DNA of 64,000 nt from Acanthosoma haemorrhoidale (taxonomy: Eukaryota > Arthropoda > Insecta > Hemiptera > Acanthosomatidae), in assembly GCA_930367205.1 (NCBI GenBank), contig OV884009.1, positions 90,541,189 to 90,605,188 of the forward strand, written 5' to 3'. Position numbers and translations under genes: made by a program. Below the pieces are notes generated by a model. The model was not told where the DNA came from. It worked only from the letters and a program-made list of their open reading frames with translations, and made no database searches. This document shows, in pieces, positions 24,801-51,900 of this stretch (position 1 is its first letter; each line of letters starts with the position of its first letter).

Positions 24801-24835
24801 CTGACTGTTTAAACAATAATTCTAAATAAAAAAAA

Positions 24836-24940
24836 TTAATTTTGGGTCCAGTAGGCAGAGGATGAATAATTTGCTTTTGTCATTACTACCTTAGCTTGCT
24901 GATTTCCTTGAGATCTTCTACTCATAGCATTTGATCCATC
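24836..24940 (-). CDS. lig: lig terminal exon, copy in block 1
   Basis: The acceptor is TTTTTTAAAG. The exon encodes [19 protein letters not shown] and then [15 protein letters not shown] before TAA: 35 codons including the stop, starting in phase 0. The final Ser/Tyr/Trp and Asn pattern resembles the YSWGAN end of UBAP2L. Of the six copies, this one is the likeliest authentic gene end because it retains a single-copy 3' flank. Confidence 0.85.
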   Translation of the reverse strand, partial: DGSNAMSRRSQGNQQAKVVMTKANYSSSAYWTQN

Positions 24941-27900
24941 CTTTAAAAAACAACACAAAATTAAATTAAATATCATCTGAAAATATTGAAATTTAAATAA
25001 TGTGGTAGATTAATGGATCACATATAACAAATAATCAAAATAGCTTAATGTTTTTTTGAAAAGATAATTTATTTTCATTAACAAATGTACTATATCAGCC
25101 TACAACCACAAGTAGACATTAGTTGATGCATGAAATTATATTAACATAAAAAAAAAAATTGTATCTAGTAGTATATTTACTCCATTTGACTAAATAGCAG
25201 GCAGCACGGCCTTAATACTAAACTCAATCATTCATATTTTACTGTAAGGCAAGAAATTTTTACTGTGATTGTATGAATCAATTTTAATTAATTTGTATCT
25301 TAATAAATAGAAATGATTCTTTAATATAATAAAATTTGATTAACTTCGTTGAGGACGTTTTCTGGGGTCTCAGTCAAAGTTCAATCAGTTTAGTGATGAG
25401 GGAAAATCAGTAGCCACTTAGATAAAGAAATAGGAAATCTAGTCTAGAAAACCAAAACAAAGTTTGAGAAGAAACAACTTAGTGTGTCTACTACTAGGTT
25501 CCTTACTGCTATATCCTAATTATGATGGCTTTAATATAATTCTAATTGCAAAATTTTTTTTGTGAAAATATAAATCAGGTTTATAGCTATATTTGAGGGG
25601 TGAATCTACCCCCTAAACTAAAGACAAAAAAAGAAAAGGGCTTAGCATCATGATTTTTATTAATTCATTAGCCATTTAATTCATTTTATTTTTCTTAAAA
25701 CCTGGAATATTGAAAATTACTATCTATTTATTATAAAATTTATATCTAACTTTATTTAGAAAAGTATTTTTCTACCGTCATTACTGATTGTGCATCATTT
25801 TTTTTTTCCTTCTCATGATGTTAATAAAATAATAATAAAAAGAGACACCTATATATTTTATTAACAGTATGAAAATAAAATTTCACAAAGGCTAATAGTC
25901 TCTAGTTAATTTAAAAGTTGCCAATTCAGATTTGATGATTGTGATGAGTTATTATCATGTTGTTTCATTTTCAGTCCAGACGATGCACAAATAAGAAACA
26001 TGAATGATCGTGTGATGTAAAGAAGACAAATAACAAAATATGGACACACATTTGGCATCTGTTAAAATTTATTTTCATACTATTGATAATAAAATAATTT
26101 TATTTTTAAAGAAATTAATTATCTTACTTGATAAATAGGTTGCTGCATCGAAGTGGTTGCATTATGGTGAGAAGTCATATCATTTATAAAAAGATATTGA
26201 GGATAAAGTCCACCAGGAGCCATGCCAGAATTTTGTGATCCTATGTTAAAGGGGGCTGGTGTCGCAGAGTGGAATCCTTGCTTTTCATAAGAATAAAACT
26301 ATGACAGAATATTGAAAGGCTAATTAGGGGGGGGAAACAAACTAACAGCAGCTAAAGTTGCTCATGGGAAGGAAAATGTATTTTGTAAATGTTAAATGAA
26401 AACATTTATGATTATTGATTCTATTATATAACATAAAATTTAAACTTAATTTTTAATATCTTAATAAGTTAGGATAATATTGATAAAATTGAGCACAGTA
26501 AAGATATTATCTTGATCTTTAAAAATATATTATACGACATTTTTGATATAGCGAGATTTAGATATAGCTCCCACAAAAACAAAATATTTCTTGTTTAAGT
26601 AGAAAACCACAAGGAATTAGCAATTTACTTTTTAAACCACAAACCACCATTGGTTTAGACCTATCTATCAATTGTATTATTCTTCCCCCCCCCAACCCAC
26701 TTCTTACTTGCTTTCAAGCTTCCTCAAGTCACGCCCCCCAGAAGTGAACATAGAATCGATATTGATTTTACATATAAATAAATTAGCAGAAAATTATACC
26801 TCTTTGGAGCTTGAAGGCATGGAAGAAACTAATGCTTGTTTCTGGTGGTGTTGATCACTACTATTGTAAGTGTGATAGGGACTTGTGTACGAGGGCATAG
26901 GCAGACCAGGCGTTCCATAGACACTTTGGCTACCTGAACCATACTGTTGACTTCCAATGTCCTGATCACAACAAAAGAACACTAGTTTTTAAACAAGTGT
27001 AGCAATGTTAATTTACAAAAGATGGGTACATAAGAATAAATTTAAAAAAAAAAAAAGTTATATTATTTTGCACTTCAATAGCATCCAGCTTTCTTTCATT
27101 GTTATCAAGGGGGATGCTGACAGATACAGTATTTCAAAACGTTAATTTATCGTCTGCAAACTATCTAGCCTATCGTGTCTAAATTAGGCTATGTATGCCT
27201 CATTCTACCTTTGGCGCAAATTAGTTTTTTTATCACAGTTGTAGCAATATTGATTAGGAAGAGATAACCCATTGAGAGACTCAGAATCTAAACAAAACTT
27301 AATATTATACGACATTTTTGATATAGCAAGATTTAGATATAGCTCCCACAAAAACAGAATATTTCTTGTTTAAGTAGAAAACCACAAGGAATTAGCAATT
27401 TACTGCTTCAATGAAAGACCATGAAGAACATGAGAAATCGTAAGCGGAAATTACGTAAAGAAGGAATACATTCAATACAAGACCTTACTGACTGTTTAAA
27501 CAATAATTCTAAATAAAAAAAATTAATTTTGGGTCCAGTAGGCAGAGGATGAATAATTTGCTTTTGTCATTACTACCTTAGCTTGCTGATTTCCTTGAGA
27601 TCTTCTACTCATAGCATTTGATCCATCCTTTAAAAAACAACACAAAATTAAATTAAATATCATCTGAAAATATTGAAATTTAAATAATGTGGTAGATTAA
27701 TGGATCACATATAACAAATAATCAAAATAGCTTAATGTTTTTTTGAAAAGATAATTTATTTTCATTAACAAATGTTCTATATCAGCCTACAACCACAAGT
27801 AGACATTAGTTGATGCATGAAATTATATTAACATAAAAAAAAAAATTGTATCTAGTAGTATATTTACTCCATTTGACTAAATAGCAGGCAGCACGGCCTT

Positions 27901-30900
27901 AATACTAAACTCAATCATTCATATTTTACTGTAAGGCAAGAAATTTTTACTGTGATTGTATGAATCAATTTTAATTAATTTGTATCTTAATAAATAGAAA
28001 TGATTCTTTAATATAATAAAATTTGATTAACTTCGTTGAGGACGTTTTCTGGGGTCTCAGTCAAAGTTCAATCAGTTTAGTGATGAGGGAAAATCAGTAG
28101 CCACTTAGATAAAGAAATAGGAAATCTAGTCTAGAAAACCAAAACAAAGTTTGAGAAGAAACAACTTAGTGTGTCTACTACTAGGTTCCTTACTGCTATA
28201 TCCTAATTATGATGGCTTTAATATAATTCTAATTGCAAAATTTTTTTTGTGAAAATATAAATCAGGTTTATAGCTATATTTGAGGGGTGAATCTACCCCC
28301 TAAACTAAAGACAAAAAAAGAAAAGGGCTTAGCATCATGATTTTTATTAATTCATTAGCCATTTAATTCATTTTATTTTTCTTAAAACCTGGAATATTGA
28401 AAATTACTATCTATTTATTATAAAATTTATATCTAACTTTATTTAGAAAAGTATTTTTCTACCGTCATTACTGATTGTGCATCATTTTTTTTTTCCTTCT
28501 CATGATGTTAATAAAATAATAATAAAAAGAGACACCTATATATTTTATTAACAGTATGAAAATAAAATTTCACAAAGGCTAATAGTCTCTAGTTAATTTA
28601 AAAGTTGCCAATTCAGATTTGATGATTGTGATGAGTTATTATCATGTTGTTTCATTTTCAGTCCAGACGATGCACAAATAAGAAACATGAATGATCGTGT
28701 GATGTAAAGAAGACAAATAACAAAATATGGACACACATTTGGCATCTGTTAAAATTTATTTTCATACTATTGATAATAAAATAATTTTATTTTTAAAGAA
28801 ATTAATTATCTTACTTGATAAATAGGTTGCTGCATCGAAGTGGTTGCATTATGGTGAGAAGTCATATCATTTATAAAAAGATATTGAGGATAAAGTCCAC
28901 CAGGAGCCATGCCAGAATTTTGTGATCCTATGTTAAAGGGGGCTGGTGTCGCAGAGTGGAATCCTTGCTTTTCATAAGAATAAAACTATGACAGAATATT
29001 GAAAGGCTAATTAGGGGGGGGGAAACAAACTAACAGCAGCTAAAGTTGCTCATGGGAAGGAAAATGTATTTTGTAAATGTTAAATGAAAACATTTATGAT
29101 TATTGATTCTATTATATAACATAAAATTTAAACTTAATTTTTAATATCTTAATAAGTTAGGATAATATTGATAAAATTGAGCACAGTAAAGATATTATCT
29201 TGATCTTTAAAAATATATTATACGACATTTTTGATATAGCGAGATTTAGATATAGCTCCCACAAAAACAAAATATTTCTTGTTTAAGTAGAAAACCACAA
29301 GGAATTAGCAATTTACTTTTTAAACCACAAACCACCATTGGTTTAGACCTATCTATCAATTGTATTATTCTTCCCCCCCCCCAACCCACTTCTTACTTGC
29401 TTTCAAGCTTCCTCAAGTCACGCCCCCCAGAAGTGAACATAGAATCGATATTGATTTTACATATAAATAAATTAGCAGAAAATTATACCTCTTTGGAGCT
29501 TGAAGGCATGGAAGAAACTAATGCTTGTTTCTGGTGGTGTTGATCACTACTATTGTAAGTGTGATAGGGACTTGTGTACGAGGGCATAGGCAGACCAGGC
29601 GTTCCATAGACACTTTGGCTACCTGAACCATACTGTTGACTTCCAATGTCCTGATCACAACAAAAGAACACTAGTTTTTAAACAAGTGTAGCAATGTTAA
29701 TTAACAAAAGATGGGTACAGAAGAATAAATTAAAAAAAAAAAAAGTTATATTATTTTGCACTTCAATAGCATCCAGCTTTCTTTCATTGTTATCAAGGGG
29801 GATGCTGACAGATACAGTATTTCAAAACGTTAATTTATCGTCTGCAAACTATCTAGCCTATCGTGTCTAAATTAGGCTATGTATGCCTCATTCTACCTTT
29901 GGCGCAAATTAGTTTTTTTATCACAGTTGTAGCAATATTGATTAGGAAGAGATAACCCATTGAGAGACTCAGAATCTAAACAAAACTTAATATTATACGA
30001 CATTTTTGATATAGCAAGATTTAGATATAGCTCCCACAAAAACAGAATATTTCTTGTTTAAGTAGAAAACCACAAGGAATTAGCAATTTACTGCTTCAAT
30101 GAAAGACCATGAAGAACATGAGAAATCGTAAGCGGAAATTACGTAAAGAAGGAATACATTCAATACAAGACCTTACTGACTGTTTAAACAATAATTCTAA
30201 ATAAAAAAAATTAATTTTGGGTCCAGTAGGCAGAGGATGAATAATTTGCTTTTGTCATTACTACCTTAGCTTGCTGATTTCCTTGAGATCTTCTACTCAT
30301 AGCATTTGATCCATCCTTTAAAAAACAACACAAAATTAAATTAAATATCATCTGAAAATATTGAAATTTAAATAATGTGGTAGATTAATGGATCACATAT
30401 AACAAATAATCAAAATAGCTTAATGTTTTTTTGAAAAGATAATTTATTTTCATTAACAAATGTACTATATCAGCCTACAACCACAAGTAGACATTAGTTG
30501 ATGCATGAAATTATATTAACATAAAAAAAAAAATTGTATCTAGTAGTATATTTACTCCATTTGACTAAATAGCAGGCAGCACGGCCTTAATACTAAACTC
30601 AATCATTCATATTTTACTGTAAGGCAAGAAATTTTTACTGTGATTGTATGAACCAATTTTAATTAATTTGTATCTTAATAAATAGAAATGATTCTTTAAT
30701 ATAATAAAATTTGATTAACTTCGTTGAGGACGTTTTCTGCGGTCTCAGTCAAAGTTCAATCAGTTTAGTGATGAGGGAAAATCAGTAGCCACTTAGGTAA
30801 AGAAATAGGAAATCTAGTCTAGAAAACCAAAACAAAGTTTGAGAAGAAACAACTTAGTGTGTCTACTACTAGGTTCCTTACTGCTATATCCTAATTATGA

Positions 30901-33900
30901 TGGCTTTAATATAATTCTAATTGCAAAATTTTTTTTGTGAAAATATAAATCAGGTTTATAGCTATATTTGAGGGGTGAATCTACCCCCTAAACTAAAGAC
31001 AAAAAAAGAAAAGGGCTTAGCATCATGATTTTTATTAATTCATTAGCCATTTAATTCATTTTATTTTTCTTAAAACCTGGAATATTGAAAATTACTATCT
31101 ATTTATTATAAAATTTATATCTAACTTTATTTAGAAAAGTATTTTTCTACCGTCATTACTGATTGTGCATCATTTTTTTTTCCTTCTCATGATGTTAATA
31201 AAATAATAATAAAAAGAGACACCTATATATTTTATTAACAGTATGAAAATAAAATTTCACAAAGGCTAATAGTCTCTAGTTAATTTAAAAGTTGCCAATT
31301 CAGATTTGATGATTGTGATGAGTTATTATCATGTTGTTTCATTTTCAGTCCAGACGATGCACAAATAAGAAACATGAATGATCGTGTGATGTAAAGAAGA
31401 CAAATAACAAAATATGGACACACATTTGGCATTTGTTAAAATTTATTTTCATACTATTGATAATAAAATAATTTTATTTTTAAAGAAATTAATTATCTTA
31501 CTTGATAAATAGGTTGCTGCATCGAAGTGGTTGCATTATGGTGAGAAGTCATATCATTTATAAAAAGATATTGAGGATAAAGTCCACCAGGAGCCATGCC
31601 AGAATTTTGTGATCCTATGTTAAAGGGGGCTGGTGTCGCAGAGTGGAATCCTTGCTTTTCATAAGAATAAAACTATGACAGAATATTGAAAGGCTAATTA
31701 GGGGGGGGAAACAAACTAACAGCAGCTAAAGTTGCTCATGGGAAGGAAAATGTATTTTGTAAATGTTAAATGAAAACATTTATGATTATTGATTCTATTA
31801 TATAACATAAAATTTAAACTTAATTTTTAATATCTTAATAAGTTAGGATAATATTGATAAAATTGAGCACAGTAAAGATATTATCTTGATCTTTAAAAAT
31901 ATATTATACGACATTTTTGATATAGCGAGATTTAGATATAGCTCCCACAAAAACAAAATATTTCTTGTTTAAGTAGAAAACCACAAGGAATTAGCAATTT
32001 ACTTTTTAAACCACAAACCACCATTGGTTTAGACCTATCTATCAATTGTATTATTCTTCCCCCCCCCAACCCACTTCTTACTTGCTTTCAAGCTTCCTCA
32101 AGTCACACCCCCCAGAAGTGAACATAGAATCGATATTGATTTTACATATAAATAAATTAGCAGAAAATTATACCTCTTTGGAGCTTGAAGGCATGGAAGA
32201 AACTAATGCTTGTTTCTGGTTGTGTTGAACACTACTATTGTAAGTGTGATAGGGACTTGTGTACGAGGGCATAGGCAGACCAGGCGTTCCATAGACACTT
32301 TGGCTACCTGAACCATACTGTTGACTCCCAATGTCCTGATAACAACAAAAGAACACTAGTTTTTAAACAAGTGTAGCAATGTTAATTTACAAAAGATGGG
32401 TACATAAGAATAAATTTAAAAAAAAAAAAAGTTATATTATTTCGCACTTCAATAGCATCCAGCTTTCTTTCATTGTTATCAAGGCGGATGCTGACATATA
32501 CAGTGTTTCAAAACGTTAATTTATCGTCTGCAAACTATCTAGCCTATCGTGTCTAAACTAGGCTATGTATGCCTTATTCTACCTTTGGCGCAAATTAGTT
32601 TTTTTTATCACAGTTGTAGCAATATTGATTAGGAAGAGATAACCCATTGAGAGACTCAGAATCTAAACAAAACTTAATATTATACGACATTTTTGATATA
32701 GCAAGATTTAGATATAGCTCCCACAAAAACAAAATATTTCTTGTTTAAGTAGAAAACCACAAGGAATTAGCAATTTACTTTTTAAACCACAAACCACCAT
32801 TGGTTTAGACCTATCTATCAATTGTATTATTCTTCCCCCCCCCCCCAACCCACTTCTTACTTGCTTTCAAGCTTCCTCAAGTCACACCCCCCAGAAGTGA
32901 ACATAGAATCGATATTGATTTTACATATAAATAAATTAGCAGAAAATTATACCTCTTTGGAGCTTGAAGGCATGGAAGAAACTAATGCTTGTTTCTGGTT
33001 GTGTTGAACACTACTATTGTAAGTGTGATAGGGACTTGTGTACGAGGGCATAGGCAGACCAGGCGTTCCATAGACACTTTGGCTACCTGAACCATACTGT
33101 TGACTCCCAATGTCCTGATAACAACAAAAGAACACTAGTTTTTAAACAAGTGTAGCAATGTTAATTTACAAAAGATGGGTACATAAGAATAAATTTAAAA
33201 AAAAAAAAAGTTATATTATTTCGCACTTCAATAGCATCCAGCTTTCTTTCATTGTTATCAAGGCGGATGCTGACATATACAGTGTTTCAAAACGTTAATT
33301 TATCGTCTGCAAACTATCTAGCCTATCGTGTCTAAACTAGGCTATGTATGCCTTATTCTACCTTTGGCGCAAATTAGTTTTTTTTATCACAGTTGTAGCA
33401 ATATTGATTAGGAAGAGATAACCCATTGAGAGACTCAGAATCTAAACAAAACTTAATATTATACGACATTTTTGATATAGCAAGATTTAGATATAGCTCC
33501 CACAAAAACAAAATATTTCTTGTTTAAGTAGAAAACCACAAGGAATTAGCAATTTACTTTTTAAACCACAAACCACCATTGGTTTAGACCTATCTATCAA
33601 TTGTATTATTCTTCCCCCCCCCCCCCCAACCCACTTCTTACTTGCTTTCAAGCTTCCTCAAGTCACATCCCCCAGAAGTGAACATAGAATCGATATTGAT
33701 TTTACATATAAATAAATTAGCAGAAAATTATACCTCTTTGGAGCTTGAAGGCATGGAAGAAACTAATGCTTGTTTCTGGTGGTGTTGATCACTACTATTG
33801 TAAGTGTGATAGGGACTTGTGTACGAGGGCATAGGCAGACCAGGCGTTCCATAGACACTTTGGCTACCTGAACCATACTGTTGACTTCCAATGTCCTGAT

Positions 33901-36900
33901 CACAACAAAAGAACACTAGTTTTTAAACAAGTGTAGCAATGTTAATTAACAAAAGATGGGTACAGAAGAATAAATTAAAAAAAAAAAAAGTTATATTATT
34001 TTGCACTTCAATAGCATCCAGCTTTCTTTCATTGTTATCAAGGGGGATGCTGACAGATACAGTATTTCAAAACATTAATTTATCGTCTGCAAACTATCTA
34101 GCCTATCGTGTCTAAATTAGGCTATGTATGCCTCATTCTACCTTTGGCGCAAATTAGTTTTTTTATCACAGTTGTAGCAATATTGATTAGGAAGAGATAA
34201 CCCATTGAGAGACTCAGAATCTAAACAAAACTTAATATTATACGACATTTTTGATATAGCAAGATTTAGATATAGCTCCCACAAAAACAGAATATTTCTT
34301 GTTTAAGTAGAAAACCACAAGGAATTAGCAATTTACTGCTTCAATGAAAGACCATGAAGAACATGAGAAATCGTAAGCGGAAATTACGTAAAGAAGGAAT
34401 ACATTCAATACAAGACCTTACTGACTGTTTAAACAATAATTCTAAATAAAAAAAATTAATTTTGGGTCCAGTAGGCAGAGGATGAATAATTTGCTTTTGT
34501 CATTACTACCTTAGCTTGCTGATTTCCTTGAGATCTTCTACTCATAGCATTTGATCCATCCTTTAAAAAACAACACAAAATTAAATTAAATATCATCTGA
34601 AAATATTGAAATTTAAATAATGTGGTAGATTAATGGATCACATATAACAAATAATCAAAATAGCTTAATGTTTTTTTGAAAAGATAATTTATTTTCATTA
34701 ACAAATGTACTATATCAGCCTACAACCACAAGTAGACATTAGTTGATGCATGAAATTATATTAACATAAAAAAAAAAATTGTATCTAGTAGTATATTTAC
34801 TCCATTTGACTAAATAGCAGGCAGCACGGCCTTAATACTAAACTCAATCATTCATATTTTACTGTAAGGCAAGAAATTTTTACTGTGATTGTATGAACCA
34901 ATTTTAATTAATTTGTATCTTAATAAATAGAAATGATTCTTTAATATAATAAAATTTGATTAACTTCGTTGAGGACGTTTTCTGCGGTCTCAGTCAAAGT
35001 TCAATCAGTTTAGTGATGAGGGAAAATCAGTAGCCACTTAGGTAAAGAAATAGGAAATCTAGTCTAGAAAACCAAAACAAAGTTTGAGAAGAAACAACTT
35101 AGTGTGTCTACTACTAGGTTCCTTACTGCTATATCCTAATTATGATGGCTTTAATATAATTCTAATTGCAAAATTTTTTTTGTGAAAATATAAATCAGGT
35201 TTATAGCTATATTTGAGGGGTGAATCTACCCCCTAAACTAAAGACAAAAAAAGAAAAGGGCTTAGCATCATGATTTTTATTAATTCATTAGCCATTTAAT
35301 TCATTTTATTTTTCTTAAAACCTGGAATATTGAAAATTACTATCTATTTATTATAAAATTTATATCTAACTTTATTTAGAAAAGTATTTTTCTACCGTCA
35401 TTACTGATTGTGCATCATTTTTTTTTCCTTCTCATGATGTTAATAAAATAATAATAAAAAGAGACACCTATATATTTTATTAACAGTATGAAAATAAAAT
35501 TTCACAAAGGCTAATAGTCTCTAGTTAATTTAAAAGTTGCCAATTCAGATTTGATGATTGTGATGAGTTATTATCATGTTGTTTCATTTTCAGTCCAGAC
35601 GATGCACAAATAAGAAACATGAATGATCGTGTGATGTAAAGAAGACAAATAACAAAATATGGACACACATTTGGCATTTGTTAAAATTTATTTTCATACT
35701 ATTGATAATAAAATAATTTTATTTTTAAAGAAATTAATTATCTTACTTGATAAATAGGTTGCTGCATCGAAGTGGTTGCATTATGGTGAGAAGTCATATC
35801 ATTTATAAAAAGATATTGAGGATAAAGTCCACCAGGAGCCATGCCAGAATTTTGTGATCCTATGTTAAAGGGGGCTGGTGTCGCAGAGTGGAATCCTTGC
35901 TTTTCATAAGAATAAAACTATGACAGAATATTGAAAGGCTAATTAGGGGGGGGAAACAAACTAACAGCAGCTAAAGTTGCTCATGGGAAGGAAAATGTAT
36001 TTTGTAAATGTTAAATGAAAACATTTATGATTATTGATTCTATTATATAACATAAAATTTAAACTTAATTTTTAATATCTTAATAAGTTAGGATAATATT
36101 GATAAAATTGAGCACAGTAAAGATATTATCTTGATCTTTAAAAATATATTATACGACATTTTTGATATAGCGAGATTTAGATATAGCTCCCACAAAAACA
36201 AAATATTTCTTGTTTAAGTAGAAAACCACAAGGAATTAGCAATTTACTTTTTAAACCACAAACCACCATTGGTTTAGACCTATCTATCAATTGTATTATT
36301 CTTCCCCCCCCCAACCCACTTCTTACTTGCTTTCAAGCTTCCTCAAGTCACACCCCCCAGAAGTGAACATAGAATCGATATTGATTTTACATATAAATAA
36401 ATTAGCAGAAAATTATACCTCTTTGGAGCTTGAAGGCATGGAAGAAACTAATGCTTGTTTCTGGTTGTGTTGAACACTACTATTGTAAGTGTGATAGGGA
36501 CTTGTGTACGAGGGCATAGGCAGACCAGGCGTTCCATAGACACTTTGGCTACCTGAACCATACTGTTGACTCCCAATGTCCTGATAACAACAAAAGAACA
36601 CTAGTTTTTAAACAAGTGTAGCAATGTTAATTTACAAAAGATGGGTACATAAGAATAAATTTAAAAAAAAAAAAAGTTATATTATTTCGCACTTCAATAG
36701 CATCCAGCTTTCTTTCATTGTTATCAAGGCGGATGCTGACATATACAGTGTTTCAAAACGTTAATTTATCGTCTGCAAACTATCTAGCCTATCGTGTCTA
36801 AACTAGGCTATGTATGCCTTATTCTACCTTTGGCGCAAATTAGTTTTTTTTATCACAGTTGTAGCAATATTGATTAGGAAGAGATAACCCATTGAGAGAC

Positions 36901-39900
36901 TCAGAATCTAAACAAAACTTAATATTATACGACATTTTTGATATAGCAAGATTTAGATATAGCTCCCACAAAAACAAAATATTTCTTGTTTAAGTAGAAA
37001 ACCACAAGGAATTAGCAATTTACTTTTTAAACCACAAACCACCATTGGTTTAGACCTATCTATCAATTGTATTATTCTTCCCCCCCCCCCAACCCACTTC
37101 TTACTTGCTTTCAAGCTTCCTCAAGTCACACCCCCCAGAAGTGAACATAGAATCGATATTGATTTTACATATAAATAAATTAGCAGAAAATTATACCTCT
37201 TTGGAGCTTGAAGGCATGGAAGAAACTAATGCTTGTTTCTGGTTGTGTTGAACACTACTATTGTAAGTGTGATAGGGACTTGTGTACGAGGGCATAGGCA
37301 GACCAGGCGTTCCATAGACACTTTGGCTACCTGAACCATACTGTTGACTCCCAATGTCCTGATAACAACAAAAGAACACTAGTTTTTAAACAAGTGTAGC
37401 AATGTTAATTTACAAAAGATGGGTACATAAGAATAAATTTAAAAAAAAAAAAAGTTATATTATTTCGCACTTCAATAGCATCCAGCTTTCTTTCATTGTT
37501 ATCAAGGCGGATGCTGACATATACAGTGTTTCAAAACGTTAATTTATCGTCTGCAAACTATCTAGCCTATCGTGTCTAAACTAGGCTATGTATGCCTTAT
37601 TCTACCTTTGGCGCAAATTAGTTTTTTTTATCACAGTTGTAGCAATATTGATTAGGAAGAGATAACCCATTGAGAGACTCAGAATCTAAACAAAACTTAA
37701 TATTATACGACATTTTTGATATAGCAAGATTTAGATATAGCTCCCACAAAAACAAAATATTTCTTGTTTAAGTAGAAAACCACAAGGAATTAGCAATTTA
37801 CTTTTTAAACCACAAACCACCATTGGTTTAGACCTATCTATCAATTGTATTATTCTTCCCCCCCCCCCCAACCCACTTCTTACTTGCTTTCAAGCTTCCT
37901 CAAGTCACATCCCCCAGAAGTGAACATAGAATCGATATTGATTTTACATATAAATAAATTAGCAGAAAATTATACCTCTTTGGAGCTTGAAGGCATGGAA
38001 GAAACTAATGCTTGTTTCTGGTGGTGTTGATCACTACTATTGTAAGTGTGATAGGGACTTGTGTACGAGGGCATAGGCAGACCAGGCGTTCCATAGACAC
38101 TTTGGCTACCTGAACCATACTGTTGACTTCCAATGTCCTGATCACAACAAAAGAACACTAGTTTTTAAACAAGTGTAGCAATGTTAATTAACAAAAGATG
38201 GGTACAGAAGAATAAATTAAAAAAAAAAAAAGTTATATTATTTTGCACTTCAATAGCATCCAGCTTTCTTTCATTGTTATCAAGGGGGATGCTGACAGAT
38301 ACAGTATTTCAAAACGTTAATTTATCGTCTGCAAACTATCTAGCCTATCGTGTCTAAATTAGGCTATGTATGCCTCATTCTACCTTTGGCGCAAATTAGT
38401 TTTTTTATCACAGTTGTAGCAATATTGATTAGGAAGAGATAACCCATTGAGAGACTCAGAATCTAAACAAAACTTAATATTATACGACATTTTTGATATA
38501 GCAAGATTTAGATATAGCTCCCACAAAAACAGAATATTTCTTGTTTAAGTAGAAAACCACAAGGAATTAGCAATTTACTGCTTCAATGAAAGACCATGAA
38601 GAACATGAGAAATCGTAAGCGGAAATTACGTAAAGAAGGAATACATTCAATACAAGACCTTACTGACTGTTTAAACAATAATTCTAAATAAAAAAAATTA
38701 ATTTTGGGTCCAGTAGGCAGAGGATGAATAATTTGCTTTTGTCATTACTACCTTAGCTTGCTGATTTCCTTGAGATCTTCTACTCATAGCATTTGATCCA
38801 TCCTTTAAAAAACAACACAAAATTAAATTAAATATCATCTGAAAATATTGAAATTTAAATAATGTGGTAGATTAATGGATCACATATAACAAATAATCAA
38901 AATAGCTTAATGTTTTTTTGAAAAGATAATTTATTTTCATTAACAAATGTACTATATCAGCCTACAACCACAAGTAGACATTAGTTGATGCATGAAATTA
39001 TATTAACATAAAAAAAAAAATTGTATCTAGTAGTATATTTACTCCATTTGACTAAATAGCAGGCAGCACGGCCTTAATACTAAACTCAATCATTCATATT
39101 TTACTGTAAGGCAAGAAATTTTTACTGTGATTGTATGAACCAATTTTAATTAATTTGTATCTTAATAAATAGAAATGATTCTTTAATATAATAAAATTTG
39201 ATTAACTTCGTTGAGGACGTTTTCTGCGGTCTCAGTCAAAGTTCAATCAGTTTAGTGATGAGGGAAAATCAGTAGCCACTTAGGTAAAGAAATAGGAAAT
39301 CTAGTCTAGAAAACCAAAACAAAGTTTGAGAAGAAACAACTTAGTGTGTCTACTACTAGGTTCCTTACTGCTATATCCTAATTATGATGGCTTTAATATA
39401 ATTCTAATTGCAAAATTTTTTTTGTGAAAATATAAATCAGGTTTATAGCTATATTTGAGGGGTGAATCTACCCCCTAAACTAAAGACAAAAAAAGAAAAG
39501 GGCTTAGCATCATGATTTTTATTAATTCATTAGCCATTTAATTCATTTTATTTTTCTTAAAACCTGGAATATTGAAAATTACTATCTATTTATTATAAAA
39601 TTTATTAAACCACAAACCACCATTGGTTTAGACCTATCTATCAATTGTATTATTCTTCCCCCCCCCCAACCCACTTTTTACTTGCTTTCAAGCTTCCTCA
39701 AGTCACACCCCCCAGAAGTGAACATAGAATCGATATTGATTTTACATATAAATAAATTAGCAGAAAATTATACCTCTTTGGAGCTTGAAGGCATGGAAGA
39801 AACTAATGCTTGTTTCTGGTGGTGTTGATCACTACTATTGTAAGTGTGATAGGGACTTGTGTATGAGGGCATAGGCAGACCAGGCGTTCCATAGACACTT

Positions 39901-42900
39901 TGGCTACCTGAACCATACTGTTGACTCCCAATGTCCTGATAACAACAAAAGAACACTAGCTTTTAAACAAGTGTAGCAATGTTAATTAACAAAAGATGGG
40001 TACAGAAGAATAGATTAAAAAAAAAAAAGTTATATTATTTCGCACTTCAATAGCATCCAGCTTTCTTTCATTGTTATCAAGGCGGATGCTGACATATACA
40101 GTATTTCAAAACGTTAATTTATCGTCTGCAAACTCTCTAGCCTATCGTGTCTAAATTAGGCTATGTATGCCTTATTCTACCTTTGGCGCAAATTAGTTTT
40201 TTTTATCACAGTTGTAGCAATATTGATTAGGAAGATATAACCCATTGAGAGACTCAGAATCTAAACAAAACTTAATATCATACGACATTTTTGATATAGC
40301 AAGATTTAGATATAGCTCCCACAAAAACAAAATATTTCTTGTTTAAGTAGAAAACCACAAGGAATTAGCAATTTACTTTTTAAACCACAAACCACCATTG
40401 GTTTAGACCTATCTATCAATTGTATTATTCTTCCCCCCCCCCAACCCACTTCTTACTTGCTTTCAAGCTTCCTCAAGTCACACCCCCCAGAAGTGAACAT
40501 AGAATCGATATTGATTTTACATATAAATAAATTAGCAGAAAATTATACCTCTTTGGAGCTTGAAGGCATGGAAGAAACTAATGCTTGTTTCTGGTGGTGT
40601 TGATCACTACTATTGTAAGTGTGATAGGGACTTGTGTACGAGGGCATAGGCAGACCAGGCGTTCCATAGACACTTTGGCTACCTGAACCATACTGTTGAC
40701 TCCCAATGTCCTGATAACAACAAAAGAACACTAGCTTTTAAACAAGTGTAGCAATGTTAATTAACAAAAGATGGGTACAGAAGAATAGATTAAAAAAAAA
40801 AAAGTTATATTATTTCGCACTTCAATAGCATCCAGCTTTCTTTCATTGTTATCAAGGCGGATGCTGACATATACAGTATTTCAAAACGTTAATTTATCGT
40901 CTGCAAACTATCTAGCCTATCGTGTCTAAATTAGGCTATGTATGCCTTATTCTACCTTTGGCGCAAATTAGTTTTTTTTATCACAGTTGTAGCAATATTG
41001 ATTAGGAAGATATAACCCATTGAGAGACTCAGAATCTAAACAAAACTTAATATCATACGACATTTTTGATATAGCAAGATTTAGATATAGCTCCCACAAA
41101 AACAAAATATTTCTTGTTTAAGTAGAAAACCATAAGGAATTAGCAATTTACTTTTTAAACCACAAACCACCATTGGTTTAGACCTATCTATCAATTGTAT
41201 TATTCTTCCCCCCCCCCCCCAACCCACTTTTTACTTGCTTTCAAGCTTCCTCAAGTCACACCCCCCAGAAGTGAACATAGAATCGATATTGATTTTACAT
41301 ATAAATAAATTAGCAGAAAATTATACCTCTTTGGAGCTTGAAGGCATGGAAGAAACTAATGCTTGTTTCTGGTGGTGTTGATCACTACTATTGTAAGTGT
41401 GATAGGGACTTGTGTACGAGGGCATAGGCAGACCAGGCGTTCCATAGACACTTTGGCTACCTGAACCATACTGTTGACTCCCAATGTCCTGATAACAACA
41501 AAAGAACACTAGCTTTTAAACAAGTGTAGCAATGTTAATTAACAAAAGATGGGTACAGAAGAATAGATTAAAAAAAAAAAAGTTATATTATTTCGCACTT
41601 CAATAGCATCCAGCTTTCTTTCATTGTTATGAAGGCGGATGCAGACATATACAGTATTTCAAAATGTTAATTTATCGTCTGCAAACTATCTAGCCTATCG
41701 TGTCTAAATTAGGCTATGTATGCCTCATTCTACCTTTGGCGCAAATTAGATTTTTTATCATAGTTGTAGCAATATTGATTAGGAAGAGATAACCCATTGA
41801 GAGACTCAGAATCTAAACAAAACTTAATATTATACGACATTTTTGATATAGCAAGATTTAGATATAGCTCCCACAAAAACAAAATATTTCTTTTTTAAGT
41901 AGAAAACCACAAGGAATTAGCAATTTATTTTTTTAACCACAAACCACCATTGGTTTAGACCTATCTATCAATTGTATTATTCTCCCCCCCCCCAACCCAC
42001 TTCTTAGTTGCTTTCAAGCTTCCTCAAGTCACACCCCCCAGAAGTGAACATAGAATCGATATTGATTTTACATATAAATAAATTAGCAGAAAATTATACC
42101 TCTTTGGAGCTTGAAGGCATGGAAGAAACTAATGCTTGTTTCTGGTGGTGTTGATCACTACTATTGTAAGTGTGATAGGGACTTGTGTACGAGGGCATAG
42201 GCAGACCAGGCGTTCCATAGACACTTTGGCTACCTGAACCATACTGTTGACTTCCAATGTCCTGATCACAACAAAAGAACACTAGTTTTTAAACAAGTGT
42301 AGCAATGTTAATTAACAAAAGATGGGTACAGAAGAATAAATTAAAAAAAAAAAAAGTTATATTATTTTGCACTTCAATAGCATCCAGCTTTCTTTCATTG
42401 TTATCAAGGGGGATGCTGACAGATACAGTATTTCAAAACGTTAATTTATCGTCTGCAAACTATCTAGCCTATCGTGTCTAAATTAGGCTATGTATGCCTC
42501 ATTCTACCTTTGGCGCAAATTAGTTTTTTTTATCACAGTTGTAGCAATATTGATTAGGAAGAGATAACCCATTGAGAGACTCAGAATCTAAACAAAACTT
42601 AATATTATACGACATTTTTGATATAGCAAGATTTAGATATAGCTCCCACAAAAACAGAATATTTCTTGTTTAAGTAGAAAACCACAAGGAATTAGCAATT
42701 TACTGCTTCAATGAAAGACCATGAAGAACATGAGAAATCGTAAGCGGAAATTACGTAAAGAAGGAATACATTCAATACAAGACCTTACTGACTGTTTAAA
42801 CAATAATTCTAAATAAAAAAAATTAATTTTGGGTCCAGTAGGCAGAGGATGAATAATTTGCTTTTGTCATTACTACCTTAGCTTGCTGATTTCCTTGAGA

Positions 42901-45900
42901 TCTTCTACTCATAGCATTTGATCCATCCTTTAAAAAACAACACAAAATTAAATTAAATATCATCTGAAAATATTGAAATTTAAATAATGTGGTAGATTAA
43001 TGGATCACATATAACAAATAATCAAAATAGCTTAATGTTTTTTTGAAAAGATAATTTATTTTCATTAACAAATGTACTATATCAGCCTACAACCACAAGT
43101 AGACATTAGTTGATGCATGAAATTATATTAACATAAAAAAAAAAATTGTATCTAGTAGTATATTTACTCCATTTGACTAAATAGCAGACAGCACGGCCTT
43201 AATACTAAACTCAATCATTCATATTTTACTGTAAGGCAAGAAATTTTTACTGTGATTGTATGAATCAATTTTAATTAATTTGTATCTTAATAAATAGAAA
43301 TGATTCTTTAATATAATAAAATTTGATTAACTTCGTTGAGGACGTTTTCTGCGGTCTCAGTCAAAGTTCAATCAGTTTAGTGATGAGGGAAAATCAGTAG
43401 CCACTTAGATAAAGAAATAGGAAATCTAGTCTAGAAAACCAAAACAAAGTTTGAGAAGAAACAACTTAGTGTGTCTACTACTAGGTTCCTTACTGCTATA
43501 TCCTAATTATGATGGCTTTAATATAATTCTAATTGCAAAATTTTTTTTGTGAAAATATAAATCAGGTTTATAGCTATATTTGAGGGGTGAATCTACCCCC
43601 TAAACTAAAGACAAAAAAAGAAAAGGGCTTAGCATCATGATTTTTATTAATTCATTAGCCATTTAATTCATTTTATTTTTCTTAAAACCTGGAATATTGA
43701 AAATTACTATCTATTTATTATAAAATTTATATCTAACTTTATTTAGAAAAGTATTTTTCTACCGTCATTACTGATTGTGCATCATTTTTTTTTTCCTTCT
43801 CATGATGTTAATAAAATAATAATAAAAAGAGACACCTATATATTTTATTAACAGTATGAAAATAAAATTTCACAAAGGCTAATAGTCTCTAGTTAATTTA
43901 AAAGTTGCCAATTCAGATTTGATGATTGTGATGAGTTATTATCATGTTGTTTCATTTTCAGTCCAGACGATGCACGAATAAGAAACATGAATGATCGTGT
44001 GATGTAAAGAAGACAAATAACAAAATATGGACACACATTTGGCATTTGTTAAAATTTATTTTCATACTATTGATAATAAAATAATTTTATTTTTAAAGAA
44101 ATTAATTATCTTACTTGATAAATAGGTTGCTGCATCGAAGTGGTTGCATTATGGTGAGAAGTCATATCATTTATAAAAAGATATTGAGGATAAAGTCCAC
44201 CAGGAGCCATGCCAGAATTTTGTGATCCTATGTTAAAGGGGGCTGGTGTCGCAGAGTGGAATCCTTGCTTTTCATAAGAATAAAACTATGACAGAATATT
44301 GAAAGGCTAATTAGGGGGGGGGAAACAAACTAACAGCAGCTAAAGTTGCTCATGGGAAGGAAAATGTATTTTGTAAATGTTAAATGAAAACATTTATGAT
44401 TATTGATTCTATTATATAACATAAAATTTAAACTTAATTTTTAATATCTTAATAAGTTAGGATAATATTGATAAAATTGAGCACAGTAAAGATATTATCT
44501 TGATCTTTAAAAATATATTATACGACATTTTTGATATAGCGAGATTTAGATATAGCTCCCACAAAAACAAAATATTTCTTGTTTAAGTAGAAAACCACAA
44601 GGAATTAGCGATTTACTTTTTTAACCACAAACCACCATTGGTTTAGACCTATCTATCAATTGTATTATTCTTCCCCCCCCCCCCCCCAACCCACTTCTTA
44701 CTTGCTTTCAAGCTTCCTCAAGTCACACCCCCAGAAGTTAACATAGAATCGATATTGATTTTACATATAAATAAATTAGCAGAAAATTATACCTCTTTGG
44801 AGCTTGAAGGCATGGAAGAAACTAATGCTTGTTTCTGGTTGTGTTGAACACTACTATTGTAAGTGTGATAGGGACTTGTGTACGAGGGCATAGGCAGACC
44901 AGGCGTTCCATAGACACTTTGGCTACCTGAACCATACTGTTGACTCCCAATGTCCTGATAACAACAAAAGAACACTAGCTTTTAAACAAGTGTAGCAATG
45001 TTAATTAACAAAAGATGGGTACAGAAGAATAGATTAAAAAAAAAAAAAGTTATATTATTTCGCACTTCAATAGCATCCAGCTTTCTTTCATTGTTATCAA
45101 GGCGGATGCTGACATATACAGTATTTCAAAACGTTAATTTATTGTCTGCAAACTATCTAGCCTATCGTGTCTAAATTAGGCTATGTATGCCTCATTCTAC
45201 CTTTGGTGCAAATTAGTTTTTAGTAGTGAATTAGCAATTTACTTTTTTAATGAAAGAACAAACCTGAGCATAAAACCAATTTGAGCCAGCTTAATTATGA
45301 CATTACTGTAAAATATGATTAAACAATAAATGAAAATAGAACATAAATAATAATTTAGAAGAGCTTAAGATTACTTGACTATTTAAGGGGTCTAAAATTT
45401 TAAATCAGGATAGATCGCCAACAGGATCAAAAATTTTGTTCATATTGTTGTAATATTTAGATGCTTTGCCTTTGATTTAAATTTGAAATTAGCGGGCATA
45501 AAAGGGTGGCAAACGAGCCGTGGAAAAGGAGGGGGTGCTTGGAAAACAAGATAGCAAGTAGGTTGTTCTACTGGTTATTCCCGGGAGAGGGGTTGTTGGA
45601 TGAGGATTTGGAGTTTTGGGAAGTTTTAAGATTCTTTTGTTTGTGTGGTGAATGAGGAGAGTGAAATTTGTGAAGCTTGAAGAAACTTTGTTGAGTGGTG
45701 ATTGGATAACATAAATTAAATAAATTGGGAGTACTACTCATTGTTTCACAAAAATTAAGCCACCTTAGAAACATCACTAAGAAAAAAACCATATAATACA
45801 TGCCATTCGATAGTCCATTTAATTGGTAACTTATGTTAGCATTTTTATACTTTGAGAAAATAAGTTCTCAGGATAAAAAATGTCAATATGAGATACCTAT

Positions 45901-48900
45901 TATTACATGAAATTTTATCGAGTGACAAATAAAATGTTTTTATTGGTGACTTGGTGAATTCCTAAGGATGCCTGAAGTTTAGAAAAAAGTTGATAATCGT
46001 GTTGCAAGTTTTTACATTTAATATATTTTACTAATATAGTTGTTAATTAGGATATAACAAAACAAATTAATGGTGAAGTGAATTAATGTAATGACTTTAT
46101 CATTCATAACTCAGAAGATGCATACCCCAATTTTATGCCTCTTGATTTATTTTAAGGGGACAGCAGTCTCAGAATTAAACAAAAATTATTATAGCACCAA
46201 AACTAACTTTAAACCTAAGTAAATATCCCTGGAATATAGTTACACCCAATGGTGAAGGGTTTTGGAAGGAAATGTACAAAAAACAAAGAGAGAAAAATAA
46301 ACAGGGCAGATACAAGTTTAGGAATGATCATAAACATCTGGGATAATATAGTACCATTTATTATATTTGCTGAATAATTTATACGTTAATGATGTAATTA
46401 AACTTACAATCTGTGGTGGGGGCCTTTGCCGTTGCATTAGCTGAAGGTCCTCATAAGTTATTGGCGCTTGTTGAAAACAAGGGAATCCACCCATAATATA
46501 TTGATGTGTTCCGACTAAAGGAGGTACACCAGGAGCCATATAAGCTACCAATGTAGTATTTCCCACTAGAAAATCACATTTAGAAATTAAAGATATATGT
46601 AATATTAATATATTATCTGATGATATTTATTATGTCATAGTGTATAGTCAGTGTGTATATTATATATATCTTACAAGAAATTAAGATTTCTTGAAATTTT
46701 AATTTTTTTTTATGATATTTCTACTGGTCTCAAAACCAATGAGATATTTTTTACCAACAAACTATACATCTTTGCTGACATTGTATAAACCAAAGAAATT
46801 CAATATGAAGCTAATGGTTTATTATCGTTAATACGACCGAGTGATAACTTTAAATAAAATTGCAGGAACATGAAAGGTAATAAATATTAAGAAATTGCCA
46901 AATAATAGGCCCTTTTCAGCATGTTTTTCAATAACTTCAAGGACAATCACTGGAGTTAGAATTCAAGTGTAGTTACGCATGTTTAAAAGATTTGTTAATA
47001 AATTCAGTTAATAAGAGCAAAATTAAAATTATTTCTGCGAATAAGGTACTTAATTGGCAATGTCATACATAGTAAACTTGAAAATAGATGAAATAGAAGC
47101 CAAATATTACCTATATGCACTAAATATTTCCACCAATTTGCATTTAGGAATTTGTACTTAGGAGTAACATTATACACAATATCAAGCAGAATTTAGTGGA
47201 AATATTTTTAAATTAGATGTTAATGACTTTTTCAGATAACTAGTTGTTCTGTCAAGTCAAGTGGTTTCTGCGTGCGAATTTGTGTAAACTTCTTTGTATT
47301 TGATGCTTTCAAAATTGAGGGGAAAACAAGTAGAACAATAAAGATTTTGAGGCCAAACCATGTGGATATGCCTCTTCAAAAGTTTATCTTTGGAATGGCT
47401 TAATACATCAGAATAAATAATCATTAATATGTATTCCAAATAAAACCATATTCATGAGCATTTTTTGATATATGCGCATGCAGTTTTGGGAAGTTTCACT
47501 TGATGAAAATGATTAGAAAAAACTCAAAAAATAATTAAGTACCATTAATTAATTAGCTAAAAACTGATAATCAAGAGTAAGGGGCCGAATTAACGGTATC
47601 AATTGATTAGTCATTCTAATTAATTTAATCAACCCCGTCATGGAGGTTTTTACATAAAACAATTTAAATTTCAACACTGTTAATGAAAAAGTGAAACATT
47701 TGATTAGTCTTTAATTAGGTGCAACTGATAAATTTTCAATTAAACTTTTTGAGCTAGATTAGGTTTTTATTAACATGTTTTCAACAATGAACAATATTTT
47801 CTGACTATTAGAGATGAAACTTATTTAAGAATTTGAATAAGTTTCACCTTCTTTAAGTGCAATTTTTTTTTATGGTTATTTTATGTACCGTTAAATTTTT
47901 CCCCTAGAAAATGCTTGAATAAAATGAATGTAGACATCTGGGATGTTTGGATTATTAATATACTTACTCAAGAGAGTTAAGACCCATTATTTTCTTCAAT
48001 ACTACTTAGTGTCCTGACCTCTCTATTAAAAATACTACTCCCAGAATAATTAGAAATTAGGTATTTCCTGGATGAACAACATTTAGGGGGAAAAAACCAA
48101 TCAAAATAGGTCGGTACTAGCGATTCGTCCAGTCATTTTATTCAATATTGGCTACATTGCTCAACGCAATGTTTTTCTTTTGTTTATTCTATAACTGTCA
48201 CATATTAATTAGATTGAAAGGAGGTGTAATTTAATTATTTTTTCAGAATAACATCATATTTCAAGAAAGAATCTTATATATATATTTAACAAAATCATTT
48301 TTGCCAGTATAAAATACAAATTTATAAAAATTATTGCAATAAAAAAGAAAAAGAAAATACTTACTGTTAGACATGCTGGTTGGTTTTGAAGTCTGGGTTG
48401 TTTGAGTACCGAAAAACAAAGTAGGTCCAGGATTTATTGAGCTTGAGCGAGCTATAGAGTTCAAATTTATGCTCGGTTGAGTGGTATTATCAAACTAGAA
48501 AAAGTAATATCATAATTTTAATCACCAAATATAACTAAAAAATGTTAATATTTTATACATGAAATTTTACTTAAAAAAATGATAACATTGATGCAGTAAA
48601 TGTGTAGATCACACTGTGTTTGGTTGCTTTTTTTGATTGTTATACAAGGCCAAAAGCTTTTCCTTCAATAGAAAATAGTGCTGATGAGGCTGCCAAACCA
48701 CCATTGGTTTAGACCTATCTATCAATTGTATTATTCTATTTTCAAAAAAAATTAGGAAAATAATGGTCTTTGCTGAACTCGATTACGCAGGTTTTATTTT
48801 TAAACAGGTGCAGGGCAATCATTTTTTTTTGCCAGTATATGTGTTCTATTATATTAGTTACAATACTGATTGAAATGACCTGAAAGATTAAAGGTATGAA

Positions 48901-51900
48901 TAACAAAAAAAATCAGCTTGGCCTTAATTAATTAACCCACTTCTTAGTGGCTTTCAAGCTTCCTCAAGTCACACCCCCCAGAAGTTCACATAGAATCGAT
49001 ATTGATTTTACATATAAATAAATTAGCAGAAAATTATACCTCTTTGGAGCTTGAAGGCATGGAAGAAACTAATGCTTGTTTCTGGTGGTGTTGATCACTA
49101 CTATTGTAAGTGTGATAGGGACTTGTGTACGAGGGCATAGGCAGACCAGGCGTTCCATAGACACTTTGGCTACCTGAACCATACTGTTGACTTCCAATGT
49201 CCTGATCACAACAAAAGAACACTAGTTTTTAAAAAAGTGTAGCAATGTTAATTAACAAAAGATGGGTACAGAAGAATAAATTAAAAAAAAAAAAAAAGTT
49301 ATATTATTTTGCACTTCAATAGCATCCAGCTTTCTTTCGTTGTTTGTTTCGTTGTTCCAGCAAAGGCGGATGCTGACATATACAGTATTTCAAAACGTTA
49401 ATTTATCGTCTGCAAACTATCTAGCCTATCGTGTCTAAATTAGGCTATGTATGCCTCATTCTACCTTTGGCGCAAATTAGTTTTTTTATCACAGTTGTAG
49501 CAATATTGATTAGGAAGAGATAACCCATTGAGAGACTCAGAATCTAAACAAAACTTAATATTATACGACATTTTTGATATAGCAAGATTTAGATATAGCT
49601 CCCACAAAAACAAAATATTTCTTGTTTAAGTAGAAAACCACAAGGAATTAGCAATTTACTGCTTCAATGAAAGACCATGAAGAACATGAGAAATCATAAG
49701 CGGAAATTACCTAAAGAAGGAATACATTCAATACAAGACCTTACTGACTGTTTAAACAATAATTCTAAATAAAAAAAATTCAATAAAAAATACGAAACTC
49801 ACACCTTGAAGAAACCTCAAAATTAAGTAATCAGTTGAGCGGATTTATAATGAAACATTCACTTATATCAAATTTCGAGGCTAGCTATGAATACACAGCA
49901 TAAAAATCCAATATTAAAAAAATTTGTTTAAAAGTGTCATCAGATTGTAGATTATAAGCTGACTTGGCAGATAATATATGTTCTAATAACTCTTAATATC
50001 TTATTCATAGTCAGTTGTTTTAAACAACCTTGAGCAGTATGAGGGTTCCATCTGTAGATCTGTAGAACCCAATCCATTTATCTCATTACTAGGCTAACTA
50101 CATTGTCTCCATATTAGTTCTCTATTATTAAAGGCCTCCAGAATACCTTGTCTTCGTAAGAAAGGTGCTGCACAGACATTTGGGCAGGTAAGAGATTGGG
50201 ACCACTGGCTTATCAGAAAAAACAATACTAAAATAGAAAGACTGCATAGGGCCGGTCATGTAGCTCGTAGGGAGAAGACAGCCACCCCTTTGCTGAAGTA
50301 GCATATAGAATGAAGACATTGAGTTGAGCCCTCCTGTGCCTGTGATGAAGTTTTCAGTAATGCAAGTAATCTCCTTAGTGCCGAAGTATGGAAGACGGTG
50401 GGATAGTGTTGTAACTCTAGAATGAATGGAAAAAAAAGTTTCCACCCATGATTTTTGAGAGCATTTTCGGTTTCTTCGGCTCTCTATCAAGGTTTTAAGG
50501 CCATTAGAACTATCCTTGTTTCTGCCATCCTGTGCATATGGCTGAAACTATCAAGCAGTGCCCACTAATGTTTCTTGCAGAGATTTAGCATTCATGTTGT
50601 TTCAGATAAGGTGATATTGATAATTAAGGTTTCTTAGTTTCTTCCCCAATATTTTCCACAGAAATCCCACTTACAGAATTTGGAGTTGGCTGCAGTAAAT
50701 ATTGCTATGATCCATGATATAGTACAATAGAAGTACTAAGAAAAATATAGGTAATCTTATTTATACTCTTCGATTAATCTTAATTGTAATCTAAAAATGT
50801 TGAGATATCAGCTTTACATAAAAACAATTTGTTTTATTAGGCTGATGCCACAGAAGATGGTTGATTGCTAAAATAGCTCAAGCTTAAAATTTTTGTGGAC
50901 ACAAAATTGGCTATCCTTCCCTGCTATATAATCAGACCGCTTTTTAATATATATTAAAGGGTTACCTGCTACGATAAACTCAAATAATATACTGAATTAG
51001 ATTGAAGAATAGAGTAGAAACTAACTTATTAAAATAATTCTGATTCATTAAAGACCAAAGAGGACCTTAAAATTAATAATTGGACCTTAGCAAAATTATT
51101 AGAACTTTAGTTGAAACCAATAATTAAAACGTTAGTTGGAAAACTCTCATACTCATGATTTAATTCTTCTGAATAGTTTTATTCTGTTAAAATTATGTCT
51201 AAAATGGAGAATGATGTACATTTGTTTTTTTATTTAAAATTTTAAATGTTCACTTTAAAGAACTAAATTTTATGTACAAATCAACAGTACCACAATATTT
51301 TTCAAAATAGTAATGGTGGAAGTTTACTTTAGCTCTTTGCCCTTATATCATTAACTATAAGACCTTAATAAAATCTGAGAGTGTACAAGTTCACCTACGG
51401 ATAGATAGAAAGTTTAACAGGATTAATACGGGAACGAACAGGAAAATCATGAATGACAATAAACATTTGAGCTACATTTTTAGCTCGCTCTTAGGACTAA
51501 AAATGCTATTTTCCTCGAAAATGGCTTCAACCCATTTCAAATAGGACTTTGATTAAGGTTATTCCATTCAATCTACTTGAAGATTACCAGCCAAGAATAT
51601 CTGCCATAGATCACCAAAAACATCACTATCGTTATTTTCCTATTCTACCAAGGCTGTTCTACTATTCTCCTAGATTTTACAAAAGCTTTTGACATGATTG
51701 ATTACTTTTATCCCTAAACGAGAAAATAGGTCCTTTTCTAATGCTGTGGTATGGTGAGTCCAGTACTTAATTTCTGACCGACCCAAGTCTTGCTAATCCC
51801 TAATAAACCTCTTTTTTTCCACTACTTTCTTAAGGAGTTGCTTTAAACTCCTTAACTCTATTCTGCTTGTATGGCGCCTAACTCCCCAACCGAAGTCAAT

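What the first reader, a model, noticed from the sequence alone, without database searches (positions are those of the whole stretch)
24801..45230. Tandem amplification of the last three exons of lingerer: 13 + 5 + 6 exon copies in six blocks
Seen directly: 13 copies of a 162-bp exon, 5 of a 171-bp exon and 6 of a terminal exon, nearly identical, all with GT and AG borders and no stop or frameshift in any 162-bp copy. The family (UBAP2/UBAP2L/Lingerer) is known as a single chain of exons; I know of no report of such an array in it. If real, the locus could make many protein variants from one gene.
Basis: partly seen in the sequence, partly recalled or inferred. Interest (0 to 1): 0.92.

Follow-up and report, generated by a model that had tools for sequence, protein, structure and literature searches.

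The report
Exon array in lingerer's damaged twin
Beside the intact lingerer gene of an insect (likely a stink-bug relative) lies a shortened second copy in which one middle exon and the two last exons recur in six similar blocks; the blocks likely spread by uneven exchange between short repeats and would add few new protein forms.

Summary
The array is in the sequence: 13 copies of a 162-bp exon (A), 5 of a 171-bp exon (B) and 6 of the terminal exon (C) in six blocks; a 14th A lies upstream at 49040-49201. The reading needs correcting. (1) The host is not lingerer proper. An intact 20-exon lingerer lies next to it in the same genome; the window gene is a tandem duplicate without the start exon, missing 8 of 20 exons, with a frameshift in exon 2. 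(2) A is exon 13 of 20. All 14 copies are chimeric: their 5' edge and acceptor come from a later intron. (3) A 49-bp piece from the 3' end of C, inserted upstream of A, recreates the C-to-A junction, so uneven exchange likely seeded the blocks. (4) The copies encode two A peptides, one B and one C; none of the five internal C exons has a canonical poly-A signal within 700 nt. Sequence diversity would be almost nil. (5) The copy has 87 lineage-specific amino-acid changes against 4 in the intact gene, yet 11 of 12 surviving exons are open. That is unexplained. Blocks 3 and 4 differ by 1 substitution and 2 gaps in 4.2 kb, so copy number needs reads.

The parts
24836..24940 (-). terminal exon C, copy 6 (3'-most), the only C copy in the window followed by canonical poly-A signals; other C copies start at 27523, 30211, 34456, 38698, 42823 (105 nt each)
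26128..26298 (-). exon B (171 bp); other copies start at 28815, 31502, 35747, 44115; its acceptor lies 6 nt upstream of the intact gene's, in frame
26800..26961 (-). exon A (162 bp, phase 0-0), chimeric; other array copies start at 29489, 32174, 32953, 33734, 36419, 37197, 37976, 39774, 40549, 41327, 42100, 44793
49040..49201 (-). 14th exon A, at the native place before exon e8, but with the array-type 5' edge and flank
24801..27487 (-). block 6 (A B C), 2687 bp
27488..30175 (-). block 5 (A B C), 2688 bp; 3 substitutions and 3 gaps from block 6
30176..34420 (-). block 4 (A A A B C), 4245 bp; 1 substitution and 2 gaps from block 3
34421..38662 (-). block 3 (A A A B C), 4242 bp
38663..42787 (-). 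block 2 (A A A A C), 4125 bp, B deleted
42788..45221 (-). block 1 (A B C), 2434 bp, 5' edge shortened
27302..27403 (-). 102-bp direct repeat, 18 copies in the window (e.g. also 26527-26628); it lies on both sides of 11 of the 13 array A copies (not 39774 and 44793)
27404..27487 (-). 84-bp spacer of the C-to-A junction (5 in the array + 49660-49743); 27440-27477 matches the intact gene's intron upstream of A
49732..49780 (-). 49-bp piece matching the intact gene from the last bases of the stop codon of C into its 3'UTR, lying inside the intron upstream of A with 13 bp of that intron on both sides
46408..46565 (-). exon e9 (parent exon 15)
48365..48494 (-). exon e8 (parent exon 14)
53665..53874 (-). 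exon e6 (parent exon 11)
54038..54217 (-). exon with the UBAP2-Lig (PF12478) motif (parent exon 10)
55452..55588 (-). exon DWDD (parent exon 6)
58328..58537 (-). RG-rich exon (parent exon 5)
60332..60491 (-). exon e2 (parent exon 4)
60576..60680 (-). UBA-region exon (parent exon 3)
62323..62392 (-). broken parent exon 2: a 5-nt loss shifts the frame and gives a stop

Best explanation
The array sits in a second copy of lingerer that lies directly beside the intact gene, lacks the start exon and seven other exons, and likely grew by unequal exchange between short repeated pieces, so that it would add few or no new protein sequences. Shown: the neighbouring intact gene, the missing exons, the chimeric A exon, the 49-bp piece of the C end upstream of A, the 102-bp repeats around A and the near-identity of the copies. 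Inferred, in order: a stretch containing most of lingerer was duplicated head to tail. In the second copy the A body was joined to intron sequence that supplied a new acceptor. A fragment of the C end landed upstream of A. Exchange between that fragment and the real C end created the C-to-A junction, after which whole blocks and single A cassettes (about 776 bp) expanded and contracted. Without the start exon, and likely without the promoter, the copy is probably little expressed; any transcript would have to run to the last C to meet a canonical poly-A signal.
For: Intact lingerer, 20 coding segments covering all of H. halys lingerer, at C6:90622392-90662052, minus strand, next to the window copy. 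The duplicated stretch aligns through introns and 3' flank, about 80-91% in the longer pieces. Exon 1 not found in the copy. 87 window-specific versus 4 intact-gene-specific amino-acid changes at 563 sites. Branch dN/dS 1.20 (bootstrap 0.86-1.72) if half the synonymous changes lie on this branch; 0.99-1.52 for shares of 60-40%. Chimeric A with the same junction in 14 of 14 copies: body up to 90638782, flank from 90633781. The C-end piece inside the A intron with 13 bp of intron on both sides; that intron is unbroken in the intact gene. 102-bp repeat on both sides of 11 of 13 array A copies. Two A peptides, one B, one C. No AATAAA/ATTAAA within 700 nt after any of 5 internal C stops, 5 after the last; about 2.8 are expected per 700 nt, and the 5 internal tails are copies of one another, so this counts as one observation. 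Within the array, exon A is not clearly slower than its flanks: p = 0.26 for 12 copies, 0.069 for 13.
Against: The reading frame looks protected. 0 of 11 exons has a stop although 4.9-5.8 were expected at 15% amino-acid change (P 0.0033-0.0133). No frame-breaking indel was seen in these 11 exons (about 1.7 kb) where 5.0-9.3 were expected from introns (P 0.0066-0.00009); counting broken exon 2, one is seen. All 14 A copies together give p = 0.014 for exon slower than flank. The A at 49 kb is identical to five array copies over 162 nt while flanks differ at 13-18 of about 623 sites. The new A acceptor and the shifted B acceptor both keep the frame. Nothing here measures transcription.
Confidence: 0.58

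Rival explanations
1. The copy is a live, fast-evolving gene: it is transcribed from a new promoter or by read-through from intact lingerer, starts at the methionine in the UBA exon, and its product carries a variable number of the 54-residue A module. A, B and C all start in phase 0, so any chain of A and B stays in frame.
For: No stops or frame-breaking indels in 11 of 12 surviving exons against expectation; all 14 A copies open; a candidate ATG at the start of the UBA exon; H. halys isoform X4 (P0003) lacks B, so B skipping is plausible in the family.
Against: Start exon not found and exon 2 broken; branch dN/dS near 1; including any internal C ends the reading frame; no lingerer protein found encodes more than one A or B (29 examined).
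Confidence: 0.24
2. The block count is partly an assembly artefact: repeated traversal of a shorter array or merging of two haplotypes inflated the number.
For: Blocks 3 and 4 differ by 1 substitution and 2 gaps in 4242 bp, blocks 5 and 6 by 3 substitutions and 3 gaps in 2686. No reads could be checked here.
Against: Block 1, block 2 and the A subtypes differ in substitutions, indels and block make-up; the junction pieces also occur once outside the array. Even a smaller array would keep the structure.
Confidence: 0.12
3. A pipe-like set of mutually exclusive 3' cassettes: one A-B-C block is chosen per transcript to give alternative C-termini.
For: Blocks repeat a whole 3' module with its terminal exon, as in fly pip (PMC9013439, passages); exons are phase-compatible.
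Against: The copies are identical in B and C and nearly so in A, so choice changes almost nothing; internal C exons have no canonical poly-A signal within 700 nt.
Confidence: 0.05

Closest known systems
Drosophila pipe (pip) tandem 3' exon clusters
   Same: tandemly repeated clusters of terminal exons in one gene (PMC9013439, passages)
   Different: pip clusters are described there as mutually exclusive alternatives; here B and C copies are identical and five of six C copies have no canonical poly-A signal within 700 nt
Human LPA kringle IV-2 coding VNTR
   Same: kilobase-scale coding repeat units within one gene; [quoted passage not shown]
   Different: that LPA's repeat unit holds no terminal exon is recalled. 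Here each block ends in a stop codon and lies in a truncated duplicate
Lingerer / UBAP2 / UBAP2L family
   Same: PF12478 motif and exon order as in Halyomorpha halys lingerer
   Different: exon 1 not found, exon 2 broken, 8 of 20 exons missing, array at the 3' end

Membership tests
Lingerer/UBAP2 | UBAP2-Lig motif PF12478 | tested here: met
   45.9 bits against a cut-off of 22.2
Lingerer/UBAP2 | complete N-terminus with start exon and intact UBA region | tested here: not met
   exon 1 not found, exon 2 frameshifted; the UBA exon itself is open
Lingerer/UBAP2 | conserved sequence under constraint | tested here: not met
   87 versus 4 lineage-specific changes; branch dN/dS about 1.2; but frames are kept in 11 of 12 exons
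Mutually exclusive exon array | copies in compatible phase with splice borders | tested here: met
   all phase 0 with AG/GT borders
Mutually exclusive exon array | copies encode different alternatives | tested here: not met
   2 A peptides among 14, 1 B among 5, 1 C among 6
Mutually exclusive exon array | one copy per transcript | not testable with these tools
   no RNA data
Coding VNTR of the LPA kind | near-identical kilobase unit holding whole exons | tested here: met
   2.4-4.2 kb blocks
Coding VNTR of the LPA kind | unit can be read through without a stop | tested here: not met
   each block ends in exon C with TAA; skipping of C not testable
Coding VNTR of the LPA kind | copy number varies between individuals | not testable with these tools
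   one assembly only

The most novel reading that the evidence does not exclude
A new gene is being born from a truncated duplicate: intron sequence gave exon A a fresh in-frame acceptor, the rearranged 3' module multiplied, and a frame-protected but otherwise free-running protein with a copy-number-variable 54-residue low-complexity module is made beside the intact parent lingerer.
Probability: 0.2. Interest if true: 0.75.

Novelty: new variant of a known kind. Interest (0 to 1): 0.45.

Why it matters
The intact gene next door serves as an unrearranged reference, so the pieces that built the array can be named: an inserted 49-bp piece of the 3' end, a borrowed acceptor, block and cassette expansion. 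It is a clean case for asking how exon arrays arise, and whether open, in-frame exon arrays should be taken as evidence of splice diversity. The mismatch between free amino-acid change and a kept reading frame is a testable open point.

Tried and rejected
Rejected: that this is the genome's only lingerer (intact gene found). Rejected: my early idea that the GC donor of exon 2 was damage; the intact gene has it too. Rejected: my early idea that the sequence after internal C stops (TCA|GTAAGG) is a new donor; the intact 3'UTR has TCAGTAAGTT there and the site scores weakly (0.26). Rejected: a regional acceleration; the neighbouring USP22-like gene is not clearly accelerated (window 76% to H. halys, H. 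halys 81% to Nezara). Led nowhere: 49 genome matches to one array unit showed no further array; those outside C6:90.58-90.64 Mb are all under 200 bp, but only 39 of 49 candidates were scored, counts are lower bounds, and the array's own stretch was not among the rows. A permissive search for the missing segments found nothing convincing. The 102-bp repeat could not be searched genome-wide. Papers: listings only; no paper held both 'lingerer' and 'exon duplication'. PMC9013439, PMC3708825 and PMC7613587 were seen as passages only; the last gave nothing useful.

An alignment with 500-bp flanks ran past the homologous part and gave too small p values (0.0003, 0.0011); one search replaces it. One search's indel expectation includes homopolymer runs; one search gives the lower figures. 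Intron divergence (8.4% of 10777 aligned sites) is below dS (0.150); against introns the copy's amino-acid rate would look still higher, but base composition differs and only alignable introns count, so I used dS.
Full report
Observation. On the minus strand the window holds 14 copies of a 162-bp exon A, 5 of a 171-bp exon B and 6 of a terminal exon C. Thirteen A, all B and all C lie in 24801-45221; one A lies at 49040-49201. All 14 A copies have AG and GT borders and no stop. Read 5' to 3' the blocks are ABC, AAAAC, AAABC, AAABC, ABC, ABC. The 52 array-internal matches of 500 bp or more are 96.6-99.8% identical (listed). A 102-bp direct repeat occurs 18 times in the window and lies on both sides of 11 of the 13 array A copies.

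Gene. Joined exons match Pfam UBAP2-Lig, and the best relatives are Halyomorpha halys and Riptortus lingerer, so the insect is likely a stink-bug relative. In H. halys lingerer, A lies immediately before the FETSQ exon, far from the end. Three stretches of H. halys lingerer are absent from the window and the second exon is frameshifted.

The intact gene. The own genome (865.6 Mb, 72 contigs; window at C6:90541189-90605188) holds an intact lingerer at C6:90622392-90662052 on the same strand, in 20 coding segments that together cover H. halys lingerer. The window gene aligns with it through introns and 3' flank. The shared stretch ends at about 90660.2-90660.7 kb, short of exon 1 at 90661942-90662052, and exon 1 was not found in the copy. 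The copy misses 8 of 20 exons: 1, 7-9, 12 and 16-18; of the 12 that remain, exon 2 is broken and 11 are open. A further lingerer relative with one long open frame lies on C2:7355376-7357400. Fly lig null mutants are lethal (PMC3708825, passages), which fits the intact gene being the working one; this is inference.

How the array was built. In 14 of 14 A copies the first five bases and the upstream flank come from the intron after parent exon 16 (matching from 90633781), and the rest of A from parent exon 13 (matching up to 90638782). The acceptor is thus borrowed, and the frame is kept. Downstream of 12 of the 13 array A copies the sequence returns to that intron and leads either to B (5) or to the next A (7); the last A of block 2 leads into the intron before C. 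Exons 17 and 18 are missing before B. Upstream of the A at 49 kb a 49-bp piece of the C end sits in the native intron with 13 bp of that intron present on both sides; the intact gene has the intron unbroken. The same order, C end then intron piece then A, is the C-to-A junction of the array. Exchange between the 49-bp piece and the true C end would produce this junction (inference). Block 2 lost B by a deletion of about 0.9 kb. Variable sites group the A copies into three subtypes, one of which looks mosaic, which suggests exchange between copies.

Function. The copies encode two A peptides (VQHN as in the intact gene, and DQHH), one B and one C. Choice among them would change almost nothing. 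None of the 5 internal C copies has AATAAA or ATTAAA within 700 nt of the stop; the last has, and so has the intact gene. About 2.8 such signals are expected per 700 nt on this strand, and the five tails are copies of one another, so this is one observation, not five. In the internal copies the match to the intact 3'UTR stops 47 nt after the stop codon; in the last copy it stops after 35 nt and resumes beyond a gap of about 380 bp of the intact gene. I did not test other poly-A signals.

Evolution. At 563 sites the copy has 87 changes of its own and the intact gene 4, judged against H. halys; requiring Riptortus to agree, 76 and 3. Pairwise dN is 0.090 and dS 0.150 over 572 codons; with half the synonymous changes on the copy's branch, its dN/dS is 1.20 (0.86-1.72). 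Against this, 0 of 11 exons has a stop where simulations at 15% amino-acid change give 4.9-5.8 (P 0.0033-0.0133), and no frame-breaking indel is seen in those exons where introns predict 5.0-9.3; broken exon 2 would count as one. The expectations lean on my mutation settings and on intron rates. Within the array exon A varies at 4 of 162 sites; compared with flanks p is 0.014 (14 copies), 0.069 (13) and 0.26 (12). So coding constraint before the array formed is likely, and constraint on the array copies themselves is not shown.

Relatives and literature. Of 29 lingerer proteins gathered have an A-like module and 23 a B-like one, always one each. The searches of the paper library named in Tried and rejected gave no report of such an array.

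Verdict. The array is as described but lies in a truncated neighbour copy of lingerer. Most likely it is a by-product of uneven exchange in a copy free to change; a live, fast-evolving gene is not excluded.

Noticed in passing
window 4885-17242, + strand: Exons of a USP22-like ubiquitin hydrolase, 76% identical to the H. halys relative over 175 residues and not clearly accelerated; the earlier exons may lie before the window start.
   Followed up: partly
window 6569-6763, - strand: Fragment that looks like a mariner-type transposase (name recalled, not searched).
   Followed up: no
window 22587-22868 (-) and 56024-56215 (-): Fragments that look like non-LTR reverse transcriptase or endonuclease (recalled); the first region recurs near C6:90616 kb and 90677 kb.
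   Followed up: no
G000:C2:7355376-7357400: Lingerer relative with a 758-residue open frame, perhaps a retrocopy related to the second H. halys lingerer (P0010).
   Followed up: no
parent exon 2, C6:90658919-90658999: Exon 2 has a GC donor in both the intact gene and the copy.
   Followed up: yes
window 49721-49785: The 49-bp insert is flanked by 13 bp of intron on both sides, like a target-site duplication; its source mechanism is open.
   Followed up: partly
intact gene, intron after exon 16, C6:90633781: The borrowed acceptor lies in a pyrimidine-rich, acceptor-like stretch of an ordinary intron; whether it is ever used in the intact gene is unknown.
   Followed up: no
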